Of a DNA stretch of 46,312 bases, positions 2 through 45,124 are shown piece by piece (within the stretch, counting starts at the first letter, position 1; the number at the start of each line of letters is the position of its first letter). The notes beneath the pieces were generated by a model. It was not told the origin of the DNA, did no database searches, and was given only the letters and a program-made list of their open reading frames with translations. Origin of the DNA: a virus; the IMG/VR virus record IMGVR_UViG_3300022707_005255, positions 1 through 46,312 of that record, one strand, 5' to 3'. Position numbers and translations under genes: made by a program.

Positions 2-616
2 TTTCTACCTGTTATGACAAAGGTGAATAGACAGCTCAGAAAAACCCTATTAAAAGAACCCGAAGAAGTATTTTATTACAATAATGGGGTTACCATTGTT
101 GTAAAAGATTTTGAAGTCAATGGAAATGAAATAAAGCTTATAGAACCACAGATTGTTAATGGGGCACAGACTTCTACTACTATTGCTGATATAGTAAAAG
201 GAGATCCGAACATTGTCGGAAACATCCAGATTACTATAATCAAAGAAGACGGTAGAACCACAAGAAATAACATTACCAGATTTAGAAACTCTCAAAATGC
301 AGTTAAAGGAAGAGACTTGATTTCATTAGAAAGATTTCATGATTCAATTAATGGACAGCTTGAAACAAAACTTGGATATTATTATGAACAACAAGCTGGT
401 TCTTGGATTGCATTAAGTGACAAAGAAAGAGAGTCATTCAAAGGCAATGATGTTTTCAACCAATATTTACCAGATGATCATGATCACAGGATTCCAGCAA
501 CGACGCAACACAGCGAACAGCTGCTGCAAAGTATGTGGTGGATCAAGGGAGTGGAAAAGCCACTGAAAATAAGGTGTTTGAGCACAGACTTAAAGACCTA
601 TCCGATGAGCAAATAG
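2..616 (+). CDS. AIPR-family protein, partial and probably chimeric
   Basis: The frame is already open at the window edge, so the true N-terminus lies outside. Residues around FYYNNGVTIV, IVNGAQTS and TRFRNSQNAVKGRDL are the hallmark blocks of AIPR proteins (abortive infection phage resistance, PF10592), which are bacterial and plasmid anti-phage proteins whose biochemical activity I will not assert. The match runs to about nt 470. After the palindrome TGATCATGATCA (475-486) the translation looks random, while another frame starts to read like a phage terminase small subunit. The last 45 or so codons are therefore read out of frame through phage DNA. Either the assembly joined two molecules here or a recombination broke the gene. 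The family call is fairly secure; the C-terminal end as drawn is not. Confidence 0.6.
   Translation, partial: FLPVMTKVNRQLRKTLLKEPEEVFYYNNGVTIVVKDFEVNGNEIKLIEPQIVNGAQTSTTIADIVKGDPNIVGNIQITIIKEDGRTTRNNITRFRNSQNAVKGRDLISLERFHDSINGQLETKLGYYYEQQAGSWIALSDKERESFKGNDVFNQYLPDDHDHRIPATTQHSEQLLQSMWWIKGVEKPLKIRCLSTDLKTYPMSK
475..486. repeat. 12-bp palindrome at the apparent junction
   Basis: TGATCATGATCA reads the same on both strands. It sits where AIPR-like coding stops making sense and terminase-like coding begins in a different frame. A palindromic junction is typical of misassembly or of a recombination point. The sequence itself does not say which. Confidence 0.5.
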
Positions 617-31530: not shown

Positions 31531-32100
31531 CTATTCGCCTAGAATCTTATCAGCTAGTCCTAGGGCAATTGTTTCTCTGGCTGACATATATTTGTCATAC
31601 TTAATAAAATCTTTTAACTTAGCTCTTGTATATTTAGGATGCTTGTCTTTTATCTTTTCGAGATAGACATCTTCCATCATGCCATCCGATACTTTTTCAT
31701 CCTCGGCAGCTGCTTGAAAGTCTTTACTATGCATCCAATCTATTCCAGCTATTCCATAATGCACCATAAATCTTATATTAGGGGTAAGAATGCGGTCGTC
31801 AGCTGCTTGTAATATAATAGTGGCTGCACTCATACAATACCCATACGCAATTATTGTTATATGGCTTCGGCATTCTTTAATGAAATCATATATTCCCCAC
31901 ATATTATAAGCACACCCTCCAGGAGAAGTCATCTTAATTACAATGGGCTCTTGGCTTTTTGCATCCAATATATGAAGATTTTTCATTAAATTAGATGCTG
32001 AATAATCATCTACCTCTTCAAAGAATTCGATGGTTCTTGTAGGTATATACAATCCAGTTTCATGGAACTGGGTAGTATCATCTCTAATAAACTTACTCAC
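31531..32100 (-). CDS. ClpP-like serine protease in the replication operon
   Basis: The start is GTG 32100, overlapping the polymerase stop (GTGA); an in-frame GTG lies at 32109. The 189-aa product has the ClpP/crotonase fold markers: SPGGCAYNMWGIYDFI, then GYCMSAATI (Ser in the A-x-S-x-A context), RFMVHYG (His) and YMSARETIALGLADKI (Asp region). In phages such proteases usually process heads and lie beside the portal. Here it is on the other strand with the polymerase. A role in regulated proteolysis is inferred; the catalytic Ser context is slightly unusual. Confidence 0.8.
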   Translation of the reverse strand: MSKFIRDDTTQFHETGLYIPTRTIEFFEEVDDYSASNLMKNLHILDAKSQEPIVIKMTSPGGCAYNMWGIYDFIKECRSHITIIAYGYCMSAATIILQAADDRILTPNIRFMVHYGIAGIDWMHSKDFQAAAEDEKVSDGMMEDVYLEKIKDKHPKYTRAKLKDFIKYDKYMSARETIALGLADKILGE

Positions 32101-34049
32101 TTCTCCCACCTATCTGATATCTGACCTTCCACCTCAATCTTAACAGGTCCATGGGCAGTTGTCAAGGTGTAATTTGTCATGCAATGCTCTAATAGTTTCA
32201 TGGCTTTGAGTCGTCGGTCACCATCAGCTGGAGCCTCCACCACCAATTCATCATGAACATATAATAGGGGGTGGGCATCCCAAGAATATCCTTCCATTTC
32301 TTTCTCAAACTTGTGGGCAGAATTGAGCAGCAAATCTGAGGCACTACTTTGAATGAGGGTGTTGAATCCCTTCATGTATACATCATCAGCATTCTCTATG
32401 TATATTGGTCGGCCAATTAAATTATATATAACTTCACCTGCCTCTAATTTTTTATCTATTTGTTTCTTATAATCAAACACTCCCGCATAACTGGCTCTAA
32501 ATTCTTTCACCATACTTGCACACTCCTCTATTGTCCAGAAGAAGCCATGCTTTTGCACAGAACGCTTTAATCGTTTAGCACCTGCGCCATAAAATATAGA
32601 TAGCCCAACCTCTTTACCTATCTTACGCTCAATAGGATATAGTTTCTTCACTTCAGAGGGATGGCAATCTAAGTTGAAGAAAATTTTAGTGGTTAGTCCA
32701 TGAAAATCCACACCCTCTGCCAGCACCTCACAGAGAACTGGGTCTTCTGAAAGGTACGCAATAATTCTAGGCTCAATGGCAGAGAAGTCAAGCGTAATAA
32801 GTTTTTTGTCAGGCCGTGCGACGAATAGAAAGTGTAGGCCGGAGGGTACTTGTTGTAGGTTTGGGTTGCTACTACTGAGCCTTCCGGTCCTAGTTCCAGT
32901 TGGATTAAAACTTCCATGTAGCACTCCTTTGTACTGCTTCTCTTGGTAGCCAGGGAAAAATTTTGTAGCTAAGGTCTGCTGTTTACGGTACTGAAGCAAA
33001 AGTTTAATATCTTCCTTACCCTCTCCTGCTAATACTTCTAACACTTCCACTGCTGTAGAAGAGTTTTCTTCAAAGTCTGCCATGTCATATCCAAGGTAAC
33101 TCTCCAGTAGCCACAGTAGTTGGGTGGGTGAGTCTATGTTGAAGGGCTCTAGTCTGTCTAAAGCTGCTTTTCTTAATTTTCTATATCTGTCTTGAACTCT
33201 CTCATATCTATCTGCATTAGATCCAGCTTTATCTCCAGCACGATGGCGCATGGTTCTGTATTTTTTACAGGTCTCTTCTATTTGTGTATCAGTCCAGGCT
33301 TTAATACCAGGAGCCCAAGCTGTTTCTAATAACTCTTTAAGGTGAGTGGCCTTAGTGAATGCTGCTTGAGTAGCTATCTCTAGTTCAGGCATGTCTATGG
33401 CAATACCCTTCAGCTCACTCCGCATTAGCATCTTAGACCAAGGTAGTAAGGTCTCTTCATAAAACTTCCACTCTTCTTCAGTGGATAATACTTTAAATAA
33501 CTTATACAATCTATACGTGTACTCACAATCCTTTAAACAATATTCAGGATCATCGTGGTTGGAGGGATCCTCCCAGAATCTAGGCACGTCTAAGAAATAA
33601 GGGGCCAATGATTTAAGGCTGGTCTTTCGAGCCTTTCTATGTGTGCCTACAATTTTTTTATTCTCTTCTTTACGTTGAAGCTCATAATCCTTTAGCCATT
33701 CATCTGGTATCTTATGCTTAATGATACTGGAAAGCAGCTGCGTGTCTGCCACCCATCTATCTGTTAGATCGATGCCTCTAGCTATTAAGTGTTTGAAGTC
33801 AAACTTGCCGTTGTGTGCTATGAAGGTGAAGTCACAATCTTCATCATCTATGAGTTCTTTGAAGTCTTCTATGGTGTCGAAGGCAACATCAAAAGTTAAG
33901 CCTGTTTCTGGGAGAATAGCGTAAACACCAACTAAAGTTATCCTGTTCCTATTGTGATCTAAAGCATGGAGGCACTTACTACTTCCACCAAATCCTTCAC
34001 ACTCCTTTACGTCACAGCAGGTCTCAATGTCTAGGGCAGCTAAGGTCAT
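32097..34049 (-). CDS. DNA polymerase I (family A) with 3'-5' exonuclease
   Basis: A 650-aa protein. The exonuclease has DIET (D7, E9), HNGKFDF (D85) and YCLKD (Y170, D174), all intact. Polymerase motif A is LDFSAIEPRI (D421, E425), motif B is RKIGKEVGLSIFYG (R475, K479, Y487) and motif C is VHDE (H599-E601). The residue equal to E. coli Phe762 is Leu483. Dideoxynucleotide discrimination and slower, more accurate synthesis have been linked to this change in virioplankton. The start ATG overlaps the stop of the upstream zinc-ribbon gene. It likely works with the PrimPol-helicase. Confidence 0.97.
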   Translation of the reverse strand: MTLAALDIETCCDVKECEGFGGSSKCLHALDHNRNRITLVGVYAILPETGLTFDVAFDTIEDFKELIDDEDCDFTFIAHNGKFDFKHLIARGIDLTDRWVADTQLLSSIIKHKIPDEWLKDYELQRKEENKKIVGTHRKARKTSLKSLAPYFLDVPRFWEDPSNHDDPEYCLKDCEYTYRLYKLFKVLSTEEEWKFYEETLLPWSKMLMRSELKGIAIDMPELEIATQAAFTKATHLKELLETAWAPGIKAWTDTQIEETCKKYRTMRHRAGDKAGSNADRYERVQDRYRKLRKAALDRLEPFNIDSPTQLLWLLESYLGYDMADFEENSSTAVEVLEVLAGEGKEDIKLLLQYRKQQTLATKFFPGYQEKQYKGVLHGSFNPTGTRTGRLSSSNPNLQQVPSGLHFLFVARPDKKLITLDFSAIEPRIIAYLSEDPVLCEVLAEGVDFHGLTTKIFFNLDCHPSEVKKLYPIERKIGKEVGLSIFYGAGAKRLKRSVQKHGFFWTIEECASMVKEFRASYAGVFDYKKQIDKKLEAGEVIYNLIGRPIYIENADDVYMKGFNTLIQSSASDLLLNSAHKFEKEMEGYSWDAHPLLYVHDELVVEAPADGDRRLKAMKLLEHCMTNYTLTTAHGPVKIEVEGQISDRWEK

Positions 34050-41492: not shown

Positions 41493-41816
41493 TTATTTTG
41501 ATTTAAATTTAGTTCCACATTTAAGGCAAACGAGTCCAATGGACCAGATATTCTCAATGTCATGTTCACACTTTTCAGTAACTGTCAGCGGTTCTACGTT
41601 TATGAGTAGGGCTTGGTGTGTGTGTATGTCTGACTGTTTGCGCCTACCTGAAATACATCCAAAGTCGTCCTCAAAAAACAAAACCTGCCCATTCTCTTCC
41701 AGCCATTTGTCATGGATTTCTTGGGCTACTCCGCATGCAAAAGCTGGTCCCATGTGCTCACCCTCCTGATAAATCCCATAACCAAACATCCTCGGCGTAA
41801 ACACTAGCTTACTCAT
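41493..41816 (-). CDS. Small zinc-ribbon protein, paralogue 2 (107 aa)
   Basis: MSKLVFTPRMFGYGIY, EIHDKWLEENGQVLFFE and HQALLINVE are the family blocks. The zinc part is reduced to CEH and CLKCG, and the usual end TGWEPA is missing (it ends FKSK). This fits with the next gene not overlapping its stop. The start at 41816 (ATGA overlap) is preferred over 41828. It is the most divergent member of the four. Confidence 0.7.
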   Translation of the reverse strand: MSKLVFTPRMFGYGIYQEGEHMGPAFACGVAQEIHDKWLEENGQVLFFEDDFGCISGRRKQSDIHTHQALLINVEPLTVTEKCEHDIENIWSIGLVCLKCGTKFKSK

Positions 41817-42160
41817 GCTGGCTCCCATCCTGTTGGCTTAAGGTCTATGTCGCACTTAACACATCTATATTCAAGATCACGGTCACTCCAAACGCCTTCA
41901 TGCTCACACTCAACCGCAGCTGGTATTTCTTCCACGTTTATGAGCAGGGCTTTGTGTGTGTCTTTTTCATTCGCTTCATGTGACCACCACCAGTAGTTCT
42001 GATCTTGATACTGACCATACATAACCTGCCCGTTCTCTTTGAGCCAAGTGTCGAAAATGTTTTGCGCTGCATCAGCCGCACTTTCTATGATTGACTCCTC
42101 ATCAAAATTATCTATCCCTTCAATGCGTAACATCAAAGGCGTGAAGGTTAACTTAGTCAT
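41813..42160 (-). CDS. Small zinc-ribbon protein, paralogue 3 (115 aa)
   Basis: MTKLTFTPLMLRIE, NIFDTWLKENGQVMYG, HKALLINVEEIPAA, CEHEG and YRCVKCDIDLKPTGWEPA. CxH plus CxxC suggests one zinc site. The ATG overlaps the previous stop. The terminal codons (GGATGGGAGCCAGC) act as ribosome site for the next gene. Closely related to paralogue 4, so a recent tandem duplication is likely. Confidence 0.75.
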   Translation of the reverse strand: MTKLTFTPLMLRIEGIDNFDEESIIESAADAAQNIFDTWLKENGQVMYGQYQDQNYWWWSHEANEKDTHKALLINVEEIPAAVECEHEGVWSDRDLEYRCVKCDIDLKPTGWEPA

Positions 42161-42507
42161 GCGGGTTCCCATCCTGTGGGGTTTAGCTCCACATTACAGT
42201 GCATGCAACGCCAGCCATCAGCATCTCCTTCAACATTTGGCCAATGATCACACTCAACAGCAGCTGTCTGTATCTCTTCTATGTTAACCAGCAGGGCTTT
42301 GTGTGTGTAGGAAACTTCAAAGCCTTTATCATACTTAGCCCATAAATCATTCTCATCATTTAATATTTCCGAATAAACAACCACACCGTTCTCTTTGAGC
42401 CAGGTGTCGAAGATATGCTGCGCATCCCATGCAATCTTTTCAGATTTCAGGATAGCACCAGGAACATAATCAAACATCTCCTGTGTGAAGATTAACCTAC
42501 TCATCAT
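42157..42507 (-). CDS. Small zinc-ribbon protein, paralogue 4 (116 aa)
   Basis: Same plan as its neighbours: SRLIFTQEMFDYVPG, HIFDTWLKENGVVVYSE, HKALLVNIEEIQTAA, CDH, then WRCMHCNVELNPTGWEPA. Starts at ATGATG (42507 or 42504). Again the ending overlaps the next ATG as ATGA. These three tandem genes and one distant copy form a family with unknown role, perhaps host-takeover factors. Confidence 0.75.
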   Translation of the reverse strand: MMSRLIFTQEMFDYVPGAILKSEKIAWDAQHIFDTWLKENGVVVYSEILNDENDLWAKYDKGFEVSYTHKALLVNIEEIQTAAVECDHWPNVEGDADGWRCMHCNVELNPTGWEPA

Positions 42508-43181: not shown

Positions 43182-43615
43182 CCTCCACCACACTTGCATC
43201 CAGTCACCATGAGCACGGTGTCAAAGTCGCACGAGCAGGTGGTCTTTGAAGCTGGTTGGCCTCCATGATAATGAGGGAAAGGGAATTCGTCACAAGAGCA
43301 AGTGGGCTTTTCAGTAACTGTTTGCTCCCGTTCTTCCCATTGACCTTGTCTATATATGAGGTGCTCTTTTATGTCGCCTTCTTTGGGCTGAGAAGCAGCT
43401 GGTTGCGGTACTAAGAAATCTATTGGTTCTAGAGTCTCCTCGGGTTCGAAGATGTGCTTATAGTCCTCTATAGAGTACTGAGGATAATGAACTTGTCCTA
43501 CAGCGTCAATGACATATCTTAGCTTACCTTTATAGATTCTCTTAATTAGCCACTCCTCACCAGGAAATCGTAGCCTTAGGAATTGTAGTATCTCATCGGT
43601 TACTTTTATTTCCAT
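43178..43615 (-). CDS. Hypothetical protein with Cys/His-rich C-terminus (145 aa)
   Basis: An N-terminal ordered part (VTDEILQFLRLRFPGEEWLI, YPQYSIEDYKHIFEPEE) is followed by a linker and two short clusters, CSCDEFPFPHYHGG and CSCDFD/GCKCGGG. These suggest a metal site or disulphide region. It is not a family that I know. Confidence 0.6.
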   Translation of the reverse strand: MEIKVTDEILQFLRLRFPGEEWLIKRIYKGKLRYVIDAVGQVHYPQYSIEDYKHIFEPEETLEPIDFLVPQPAASQPKEGDIKEHLIYRQGQWEEREQTVTEKPTCSCDEFPFPHYHGGQPASKTTCSCDFDTVLMVTGCKCGGG

Positions 43616-43785
43616 GCTGCTTCCTGCTCCTTCTTTTCACATAGGGCCATGTGATCCAACAATGTGTCGGCGAATTTTATGGCTGACACTGCTGCTTTAT
43701 GGGGGTCGCTGCCTTGGCCTGCTATAATTAGGGCCTTCATCATTTCTGTGGCAATGAACCAACGTCTTTCGTTTTGCATTTTCAT
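43606..43785 (-). CDS. Small helical protein (59 aa)
   Basis: AAAGGAG about 7 nt before ATG 43785 is a good ribosome site. The protein reads MKMQNERRWFIATEMMKALI, then GSDPHKAAVSAIKFADTLLD, mostly helix. Its end overlaps the next gene's start by 10 bp. It is the first gene after the 43.8 kb structured RNA, from which it is separated by the U-tract and 23 bp. Confidence 0.55.
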   Translation of the reverse strand: MKMQNERRWFIATEMMKALIIAGQGSDPHKAAVSAIKFADTLLDHMALCEKKEQEAAWK

Positions 43786-43807: not shown

Positions 43808-43829
43808 AAAAAAAGTGTAGCTCAAAGGG
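43808..43829 (-). terminator. Terminator of the structured RNA
   Basis: The 3' half of the 12-bp terminal stem (CCTTTGAGCTAC) plus AC and seven consecutive T on the minus strand. The partner strand lies at the RNA's 5' end, so this is a long-range terminator stem. The inner GCTGG/CCAGC hairpin just before could also serve. A normal gene follows downstream with its own ribosome site, so some read-through is expected. Confidence 0.5.
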
Positions 43830-43956
43830 CTGGTTTCCCCACTCCAGCTCCTCGGCGCTCGGTTCCACCTAGGGACTTCGAACTTATGCGCCAATTGCTT
43901 TACCTATACAGAGGTCCACTTCCAGAGATGCCTGTTAACATTCTCCTCTGAGCTAC
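43808..43956 (-). ncRNA. Candidate structured small RNA (~149 nt) with own promoter and terminator
   Basis: The predicted start point from the promoter at 43963-43991 is G43956. The first 12 nt (GTAGCTCAGAGG, 43956-43945) pair fully with CCTTTGAGCTAC (43828-43817), and a run of seven T (43814-43808) follows. Inside lie further stems: AGAATG/CATCT (near 43944-43925), GGCGC/GCGCC (43892-43888 with 43858-43854) containing GTTC/GAAC, and GCTGG/CCAGC (43848-43844 with 43833-43829). The layout is a closed multi-branch RNA. No RNA family recognised; not a tRNA. Only its first bases overlap the stop of the gene upstream. Confidence 0.6.
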
Positions 43957-44141
43957 AATCCAAGTATCTCACGATTTTTAATCTTTGTCAATGGTTTTTT
44001 ATTTTTAAATTTAATGTGCTCTGAGATTCGTTTAGCGTTTCTTTCATACCATTCTTGGCTGTATCTATCCTCAAATTGCTCTTCATTTTCTCTTTGTTTA
44101 GGGTTCATTCTTTCTTGGATTTCTTCAAATACATCTTTCAT
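43953..44141 (-). CDS. Small charged protein, first gene of the leftward block (62 aa)
   Basis: AGGAGG about 7 nt before ATG 44141 fixes the start (an upstream ATG at 44168 lies before the -10 region). The protein is acidic in the first half (MKDVFEEIQERMNPKQREN) and basic at the end (EHIKFKNKKPLTKIKNREI). It is expressed from the promoter at 44160-44188. Its final codons hold the TTGACA/GATACT promoter of the structured RNA, the same arrangement as the poly-Lys gene at 35.9 kb. Unknown function. Confidence 0.6.
   Translation of the reverse strand: MKDVFEEIQERMNPKQRENEEQFEDRYSQEWYERNAKRISEHIKFKNKKPLTKIKNREILGL
43963..43991 (-). promoter_or_regulatory. Sigma70 promoter TTGACA-N17-GATACT, copy 1
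   Basis: TTGACA (43991-43986), 17-nt spacer, GATACT (43968-43963) with the TGA of an extended -10. Near-identical to the promoter at 35847-35875, sharing TTGACAAA at the upstream side and GTGAGATACTT at the downstream side. The implied start base opens the long stem of the RNA. Its quality predicts strong early transcription by host RNA polymerase. Confidence 0.8.
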
Positions 44142-44159: not shown

Positions 44160-44188
44160 AGCGTACACTAGCAGGCAGCTGCTGTCAA
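44160..44188 (-). promoter_or_regulatory. Leftward early promoter TTGACA-N17-TACGCT
   Basis: On the minus strand, TTGACA (44188-44183), then AGCGTA on the plus strand at 44165-44160 gives -10 TACGCT with 17-nt spacing. GCAGCTG follows directly after TTGACA, exactly as in the rightward promoter at 45096. The start point would be about 44153, 12 bp before the first gene. CAGCTG in the spacer is a possible operator or a DNA-methylation-type signal. Confidence 0.65.
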
Positions 44189-44895: not shown

Positions 44896-45099
44896 ATGCT
44901 GAAAAGATATATGAGACAAAATGGCAGGCTGAGAGAGAACGTAACCAGCTGGCTTACAAATCGGCTTGAGGACGAGTTAATTGTGCTAAACACCCCGATG
45001 CCTCCCTTCAATTTAGAGCACGCCACCAAACTACTACGCTCGAGGTTGGAATTGAAGGCTCTTCAAAGAGAATTGGATGGAAAGCATAAAAAAGCTTGA
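44896..45099 (+). CDS. Small basic helical protein (67 aa)
   Basis: GAGGA is 8 nt upstream of ATG 44896. It is rich in Arg, Leu and Lys (RLRENVTSWLTNRLEDELIV, LLRSRLELKALQRELDGK). Its last codons contain the TTGACA of the next promoter, the same nesting of promoter in gene end as at 35.9 and 44.0 kb. Unknown function. Confidence 0.55.
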   Translation: MLKRYMRQNGRLRENVTSWLTNRLEDELIVLNTPMPPFNLEHATKLLRSRLELKALQRELDGKHKKA

Positions 45100-45124
45100 C
45101 AGCAGCTGTTTACGGTGCTACTAT
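45096..45124 (+). promoter_or_regulatory. Rightward early promoter TTGACA-N17-TACTAT
   Basis: TTGACA at 45096-45101, 17-nt spacer, TACTAT at 45119-45124 with TGC before it (extended -10). The spacer begins GCAGCTG as in the leftward promoter at 44160. It drives the small genes from 45146. The -35 lies over the stop of the gene before. Confidence 0.7.

What the first reader, a model, noticed from the sequence alone, without database searches (positions are those of the whole stretch)
43808..43991. Self-contained small RNA unit: strong promoter, closed multi-branch RNA, U7 terminator
The promoter TTGACA-N17-GATACT places the start at G43956, the first base of a 12-bp stem whose other strand sits directly before seven T. 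About 120 nt between them form at least three further stems (including GGCGC/GCGCC with an inner GTTC/GAAC). No frame of note lies inside. Promoter, closing stem and terminator define the same ends independently, which is hard to explain by chance. It could be a regulator of early mRNAs, a decoy of a host RNA factor, or a packaging or replication cofactor. I know of no family matching it.
Basis: partly seen in the sequence, partly recalled or inferred. Interest (0 to 1): 0.9.

Follow-up and report, generated by a model that had tools for sequence, protein, structure and literature searches.

The report
Phage early-operon small RNA or leader
A short phage transcript about 150 bases long, with a good promoter at one end, a long stem that ties its two ends together, and a strong stop signal, lies just before an early gene; it is probably real and most likely a leader whose terminator controls that gene, but it has no detectable relatives, so neither its inner shape nor its job can be proven from sequence.

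Summary
The anatomy is real. On the minus strand a TTGACA-17-GATACT promoter (with TGn) points to a start at about G43956. A 13-pair stem (43957-43945 with 43828-43816) closes the unit and is followed by C and U7 (43814-43808). A stem this long before T7 is expected 0.017 times per shuffled window. The inner branches are not supported: the interior folds worse than its shuffles (z +1.36). The promoter lies inside the end of a co-directional 62-aa ORF whose UAG stop sits in the 5' arm of the stem. Twenty-two bases after the U-run comes the ATG of the next gene, with a good ribosome site. The unit is therefore also a leader with an intrinsic terminator, and I favour an attenuator over a trans-acting RNA, though not strongly. 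No Rfam family matches. No homologue was found in IMG/VR, in 84,980 genomes or in phages related at 30-45% protein identity, so covariation could not be tested. A look-alike in other phages (L046, L058, L059) shows real covariation, but homology with the window RNA is not shown.

The parts
43986..43991 (-). -35 element TTGACA
   Evidence: exact consensus
43963..43968 (-). -10 element GATACT with TGn (TGA) just upstream, 17-nt spacer
   Evidence: 10 of 12 in all, extended -10
43945..43957 (-). 5' arm of the closing stem, UGUAGCUCAGAGG; predicted start at 43957-43955; holds the UAG stop (43955-43953) of the upstream ORF
   Evidence: pair probabilities, shuffles, translation
43829..43944 (-). interior of about 116 nt with predicted hairpins (AUGUU/GGCAU, ACCU/AGGU, GGCGC/GCGCC with inner GUUC/GAAC, GCUGG/CCAGC)
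   Evidence: predicted only; interior z +1.36, not better than shuffles
43816..43828 (-). 3' arm of the closing stem, CCUUUGAGCUACA
43808..43814 (-). U7 tract of the intrinsic terminator, one C after the stem
   Evidence: sequence
43953..44141 (-). upstream 62-aa ORF with AGGAGG ribosome site; its 3' end contains the RNA's promoter; own likely promoter TTGACAGCAGCTG at 44188-44176
   Evidence: no Pfam family (longer reading frame)
43606..43785 (-). downstream 59-aa ORF, AAAGGAG-CGCCCCC-ATG, starting 22 bases after the U-run; first gene the terminator would attenuate
   Evidence: no Pfam family

Best explanation
A short early transcript starts at about 43956 from a host-type promoter and normally ends at the U7 after 43815. 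It folds with its two ends paired, and that end-to-end stem is the hairpin of an intrinsic terminator. Because the next early gene begins 22 bases later on the same strand, I read the unit as a promoter-proximal leader with an intrinsic terminator (an attenuator) in the leftward early operon. Transcripts from the internal promoter mostly stop, yielding a stable RNA of about 150 nt, and readthrough expresses the gene at 43785 and those beyond. On longer transcripts from the upstream promoter, ribosomes stopping at the UAG inside the 5' arm could keep the stem open and let polymerase through. Shown by sequence: promoter, stem, U-run, stop codon in the arm, downstream ribosome site. Inferred: that it is transcribed, that termination is conditional, and the ribosome step.
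For: Promoter with 17-nt spacing and TGn places the start on the first bases of the stem. The stem before T7 is unique in the window, 0.017 expected per shuffled window. Sites of at least 10 of 12 occur at 26 per 92,624 strand-bases, so the coincidence with the stem start within three bases has a chance of about 0.001. The upstream stop lies in the arm, and the downstream SD and ATG are 22 bases away. The closing stem also dominates in the longer operon transcript (probability about 1 over six of its outer pairs) and is lost if the arm is held open, leaving only a weaker local hairpin. Before the 3' arm exists, the 5' arm is sequestered in an early hairpin of -9.7 kcal/mol.
Against: No transcript data. 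No homologue, so no covariation or conservation. The early competing hairpin is of a kind that shuffled interiors give in 13% of cases, so it is no evidence for a designed switch. The downstream gene is of unknown function, and no ligand- or factor-binding motif was recognised.
Confidence: 0.42

Rival explanations
1. A free-standing small RNA acting in trans (antisense regulator, protein decoy or cofactor); readthrough into the next gene is incidental.
For: Own promoter and terminator fix both ends. Abundant intergenic small RNAs are known from virulent phages, for example PAK_P3 sRNA1 and sRNA2 of about 100 nt (PMC4933390). Seven GGA motifs against 3.8 expected is borderline (P 0.05).
Against: No complementarity to phage transcripts beyond shuffles. 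The interior structure is no better than chance. It sits tightly between two co-directional genes. No homologues in phages or in 84,980 genomes.
Confidence: 0.3
2. A plain constitutive intercistronic terminator or mRNA-processing or stability element between two early genes; the promoter match is only there to restart transcription.
For: Position between genes. Related phage L003 has an ordinary terminator hairpin GGUAGCAGG/CCUGCUACC with U6 between early genes. A structured intercistronic element also lies between genes in L046, L058 and L059.
Against: Simple terminators use a local hairpin; here the arms are 116 nt apart and the 5' arm starts at the predicted transcription start.
Confidence: 0.18
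3. Chance coincidence of a promoter-like site, an inverted repeat and a T-run.
For: The promoter lies inside coding sequence. The interior fold is not exceptional. This was one feature picked from a whole window.
Against: About 0.017 for stem plus T7 times about 0.001 for the promoter position.
Confidence: 0.1

Closest known systems
Transcription-attenuation leaders with intrinsic terminators (riboswitches, T-box leaders, translation-coupled attenuators)
   Same: Promoter, structured leader of about 150 nt, intrinsic terminator, then a gene with its own ribosome site on the same strand.
   Different: No Rfam riboswitch or T-box match even at E 10. The terminator stem uses the very 5' end of the transcript. 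The downstream gene is an unknown phage gene. The T-box-like AGGUGGAACCG has three mismatches to the 14-base motif, and nine other sites in the window match it as well or better.
Intergenic small RNAs of virulent phages (PAK_P3 sRNA1 and sRNA2; PMC4933390)
   Same: Short, intergenic, no coding potential, no family.
   Different: Those were seen in RNA-seq and are late; this one is only predicted and lies among putative early genes.
HK022 put RNA (PMC9378689)
   Same: A cis-acting structured RNA in the early operon of a phage that bears on termination.
   Different: put is an antiterminator near the promoter and carries no U-run terminator of its own (general knowledge); this element is itself a terminator.
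Covarying intercistronic RNA of L046, L058 and L059 found here
   Same: GUAGC/GCUAC-ended closing stem of 12-15 pairs, about 115-120 nt, a few bases after a stop codon and about 20 bases before an ATG.
   Different: Its model scores the window RNA at only 5.5 bits. No U-run in L058 or L059, so not a terminator there. L046 was itself picked by the stem sequence.

Membership tests
Intrinsic (Rho-independent) terminator | G+C-containing stem directly followed by a U-run on the same strand | tested here: met
   13-pair stem, one C, U7; the arms are unusually far apart (116 nt)
Discrete small-RNA transcription unit | promoter start and terminator end coincide with the structure | tested here: met
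   sequence level only; transcription not testable here
Transcription attenuator / riboswitch leader | terminator between promoter and start codon of a co-directional gene | tested here: met
   U-run ends at 43808, ATG at 43785
Transcription attenuator / riboswitch leader | mutually exclusive antiterminator structure selected for | tested here: inconclusive
   an early hairpin sequesters the 5' arm, but 13% of shuffled interiors do as well
T-box leader (RF00230) | match to the family model | tested here: not met
   no match up to E 10
tRNA / tmRNA or tRNA-like RNA | ARAGORN or Rfam tRNA match | tested here: not met
   only the GUAGCUCAG word is D-arm-like
Any Rfam 15 family | score at gathering threshold | tested here: not met
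   0 matches in the whole window
Covarying RNA of L046/L058/L059 | significant score with its covariance model R2 | tested here: not met
   nothing with default filters, 5.5 bits unfiltered
Retron ncRNA or type III antitoxin RNA | adjacent reverse transcriptase or ToxN-type toxin; tandem repeats for the latter | tested here: not met
   no such Pfam family in most of the larger ORFs of the putative early operon or in the 59-aa gene; no repeats visible in the RNA

The most novel reading that the evidence does not exclude
The window RNA and the covarying L046/L058/L059 RNA belong to one undescribed class of phage intercistronic multi-branch RNAs closed by a GUAGC/GCUAC-ended stem, with a shared role in expression of replication or early genes.
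Probability: 0.07. Interest if true: 0.6.

Novelty: new member of a known kind. Interest (0 to 1): 0.3.

Why it matters
If transcribed, it adds a terminator-controlled early RNA in a phage family that is almost unrepresented in databases, and the overlap of an upstream stop codon with a terminator arm gives a simple, testable coupling of translation to readthrough. As it stands it is one sequence without relatives, so its value is mainly as a candidate for transcript mapping.

Tried and rejected
Rfam at gathering and at E 10: nothing plausible. tRNA and tmRNA: none. T-box lead from AGGUGGAACCG: rejected. CsrA-sponge lead from seven GGA motifs: P 0.05, several inside stems, not pursued. Antisense to the phage's own transcripts: best score within the shuffle range (an earlier duplex script timed out). 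Homologues by flanking, terminase, polymerase, capsid and portal proteins: only relatives at about 30-45% identity or less, and these share no early genes around the RNA. Pattern of the closing stem plus T-run in IMG/VR: 23 hits; apart from L046 they look like chance matches, several plainly conserved coding sequence. In 84,980 genomes: 6 hits, none scored by the covariance model; three Clostridia hits have the same length and look like one conserved coding gene. Model R1 on related phages, five whole genomes and 398 genomes of one phylum: no full match. Homology of the L046 element: not shown. Retron and type III toxin-antitoxin readings: no partner gene.

Full report
Observation. On the minus strand, TTGACA (43991-43986), a 17-base spacer and GATACT (43968-43963), preceded by TG, form a 10-of-12 extended promoter. 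The predicted start falls at 43957-43955. The sequence from 43957 reads UGUAGCUCAGAGG, and 43828-43816 reads CCUUUGAGCUACA: thirteen nested pairs with one G-U, followed by C and seven U (43814-43808). I scanned both strands for stems of at least 12 pairs with arms 80-300 bases apart lying next to a run of seven T. This is the only case in the window, and dinucleotide shuffles give 0.017 per window. Promoter sites of this quality occur at 26 per 92,624 strand-bases, so agreement with the stem start within three bases has a chance of about 0.001.

What is not supported. The interior of 116 nt, folded alone, is weaker than 185 of 200 shuffles (z +1.36). With the closing stem the unit is z -2.36, and in the longer 155-nt stretch -1.21. 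GGCGC/GCGCC and GUUC/GAAC are predicted with good probability, but such hairpins are what any sequence of this composition would give. The statement 'closed multi-branch RNA' is therefore supported for 'closed' and only predicted for 'multi-branch'.

Context. The window is a virus record of 46,312 bases. Its terminase, portal, major head protein and DNA polymerase are 30-45% identical to those of MW202601.1 (Manatee Spring, 46,293 bases) and of IMG/VR record 3300025087_000012; the early region is not shared. Upstream of the RNA, on the same strand, lies a 62-aa ORF (44141-43953) with AGGAGG, whose own likely promoter begins TTGACAGCAGCTG at 44188. Its stop codon UAG is at 43955-43953, inside the 5' arm, and the RNA's promoter is inside its coding end. 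Downstream, AAAGGAG-CGCCCCC-ATG opens a 59-aa ORF at 43785, 22 bases after the U-run. The unit is therefore not isolated: its terminator stands between a promoter and a gene.

Mechanism. I favour a leader with an intrinsic terminator. In the longer operon transcript the closing stem still forms; if a ribosome stopping at the UAG holds the arm open, only a weaker local 3' hairpin remains. During synthesis the 5' arm first pairs with CAUCUCUGG in a hairpin of -9.7 kcal/mol and must be displaced when the 3' arm appears. Shuffled interiors do this in 13% of cases, so it is no proof of a designed switch. Trans action cannot be excluded: the terminated product would be a stable RNA of about 150 nt, but no target complementarity exceeds chance.

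Search for relatives. Rfam gives nothing plausible. Single-protein scans of IMG/VR with flanking and core proteins found no close relative, and profile scans found only distant ones. The covariance model of the RNA finds itself at 192.7 bits and gives no full match elsewhere; its best other hit is a 41-base ordinary terminator in L003. A pattern scan of 84,980 genomes gave six stretches, none of which the model recognises. A draw of 398 genomes from one phylum was empty, which is weak evidence because the host is unknown.

The look-alike. The IMG/VR pattern scan hit L046:4935-5076. Two relatives, L058 and L059, carry an element at the same place after the same neighbouring gene. Across the three, 13 of 38 pairs have changes on both sides, with 0 of 500 shuffles as high on any measure. 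It is closed by a stem ending GUAGC/GCUAC, begins a few bases after a stop codon and ends about 20 bases before an ATG (DNA polymerase in L058 and L059; an HNH gene in L046). L058 and L059 lack a U-run, so there it is not a terminator. Because L046 was selected by its stem sequence, the shared GUAGCUC is no evidence of kinship, and model R2 does not recognise the window RNA.

Verdict. Probably a real transcription unit (about 0.75). Most likely a leader or attenuator in the early operon, next a free small RNA. Ordinary in kind, orphan in sequence.

Noticed in passing
L046:4935-5076 (+), L058:3757-3889 (+), L059:2257-2395 (+): Intercistronic structured RNA with strong covariation (13 of 38 pairs changed on both sides in three sequences, 0 of 500 shuffles), before a DNA polymerase gene in two phages and before an HNH gene in the third; no Rfam match; one copy per record.
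   Followed up: partly
44176-44188 (-) and 45096-45108 (+): Two divergent early-gene promoters share the exact 13-mer TTGACAGCAGCTG, possibly -35 plus an operator-like CAGCTG box; the RNA's promoter lacks it, so it may be regulated differently.
   Followed up: partly
14-616 (+): AIPR-family (abortive infection phage resistance) protein, E 6.9e-34, at the left end of the phage record and possibly cut by it; a defence-type gene in a phage.
   Followed up: partly
31531-32109 (-): A ClpP-like/head maturation protease-type gene lies next to the DNA polymerase on the minus strand, away from the head genes.
   Followed up: no
L003:4547-4651 (+): In a related phage, an intergenic stretch with CACCTAT/ATAGGTG and GGUAGCAGG/CCUGCUACC hairpins and U6 stands between two early ORFs (z -2.7).
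   Followed up: partly
41813-42507 (-), also 41493-41828 (-): Two neighbouring small ORFs that look paralogous (116 and 119 aa, sharing FDTWLKENG and a C-terminal zinc-binding-like Cys/His pattern) and a third, more diverged one (111 aa).
   Followed up: no
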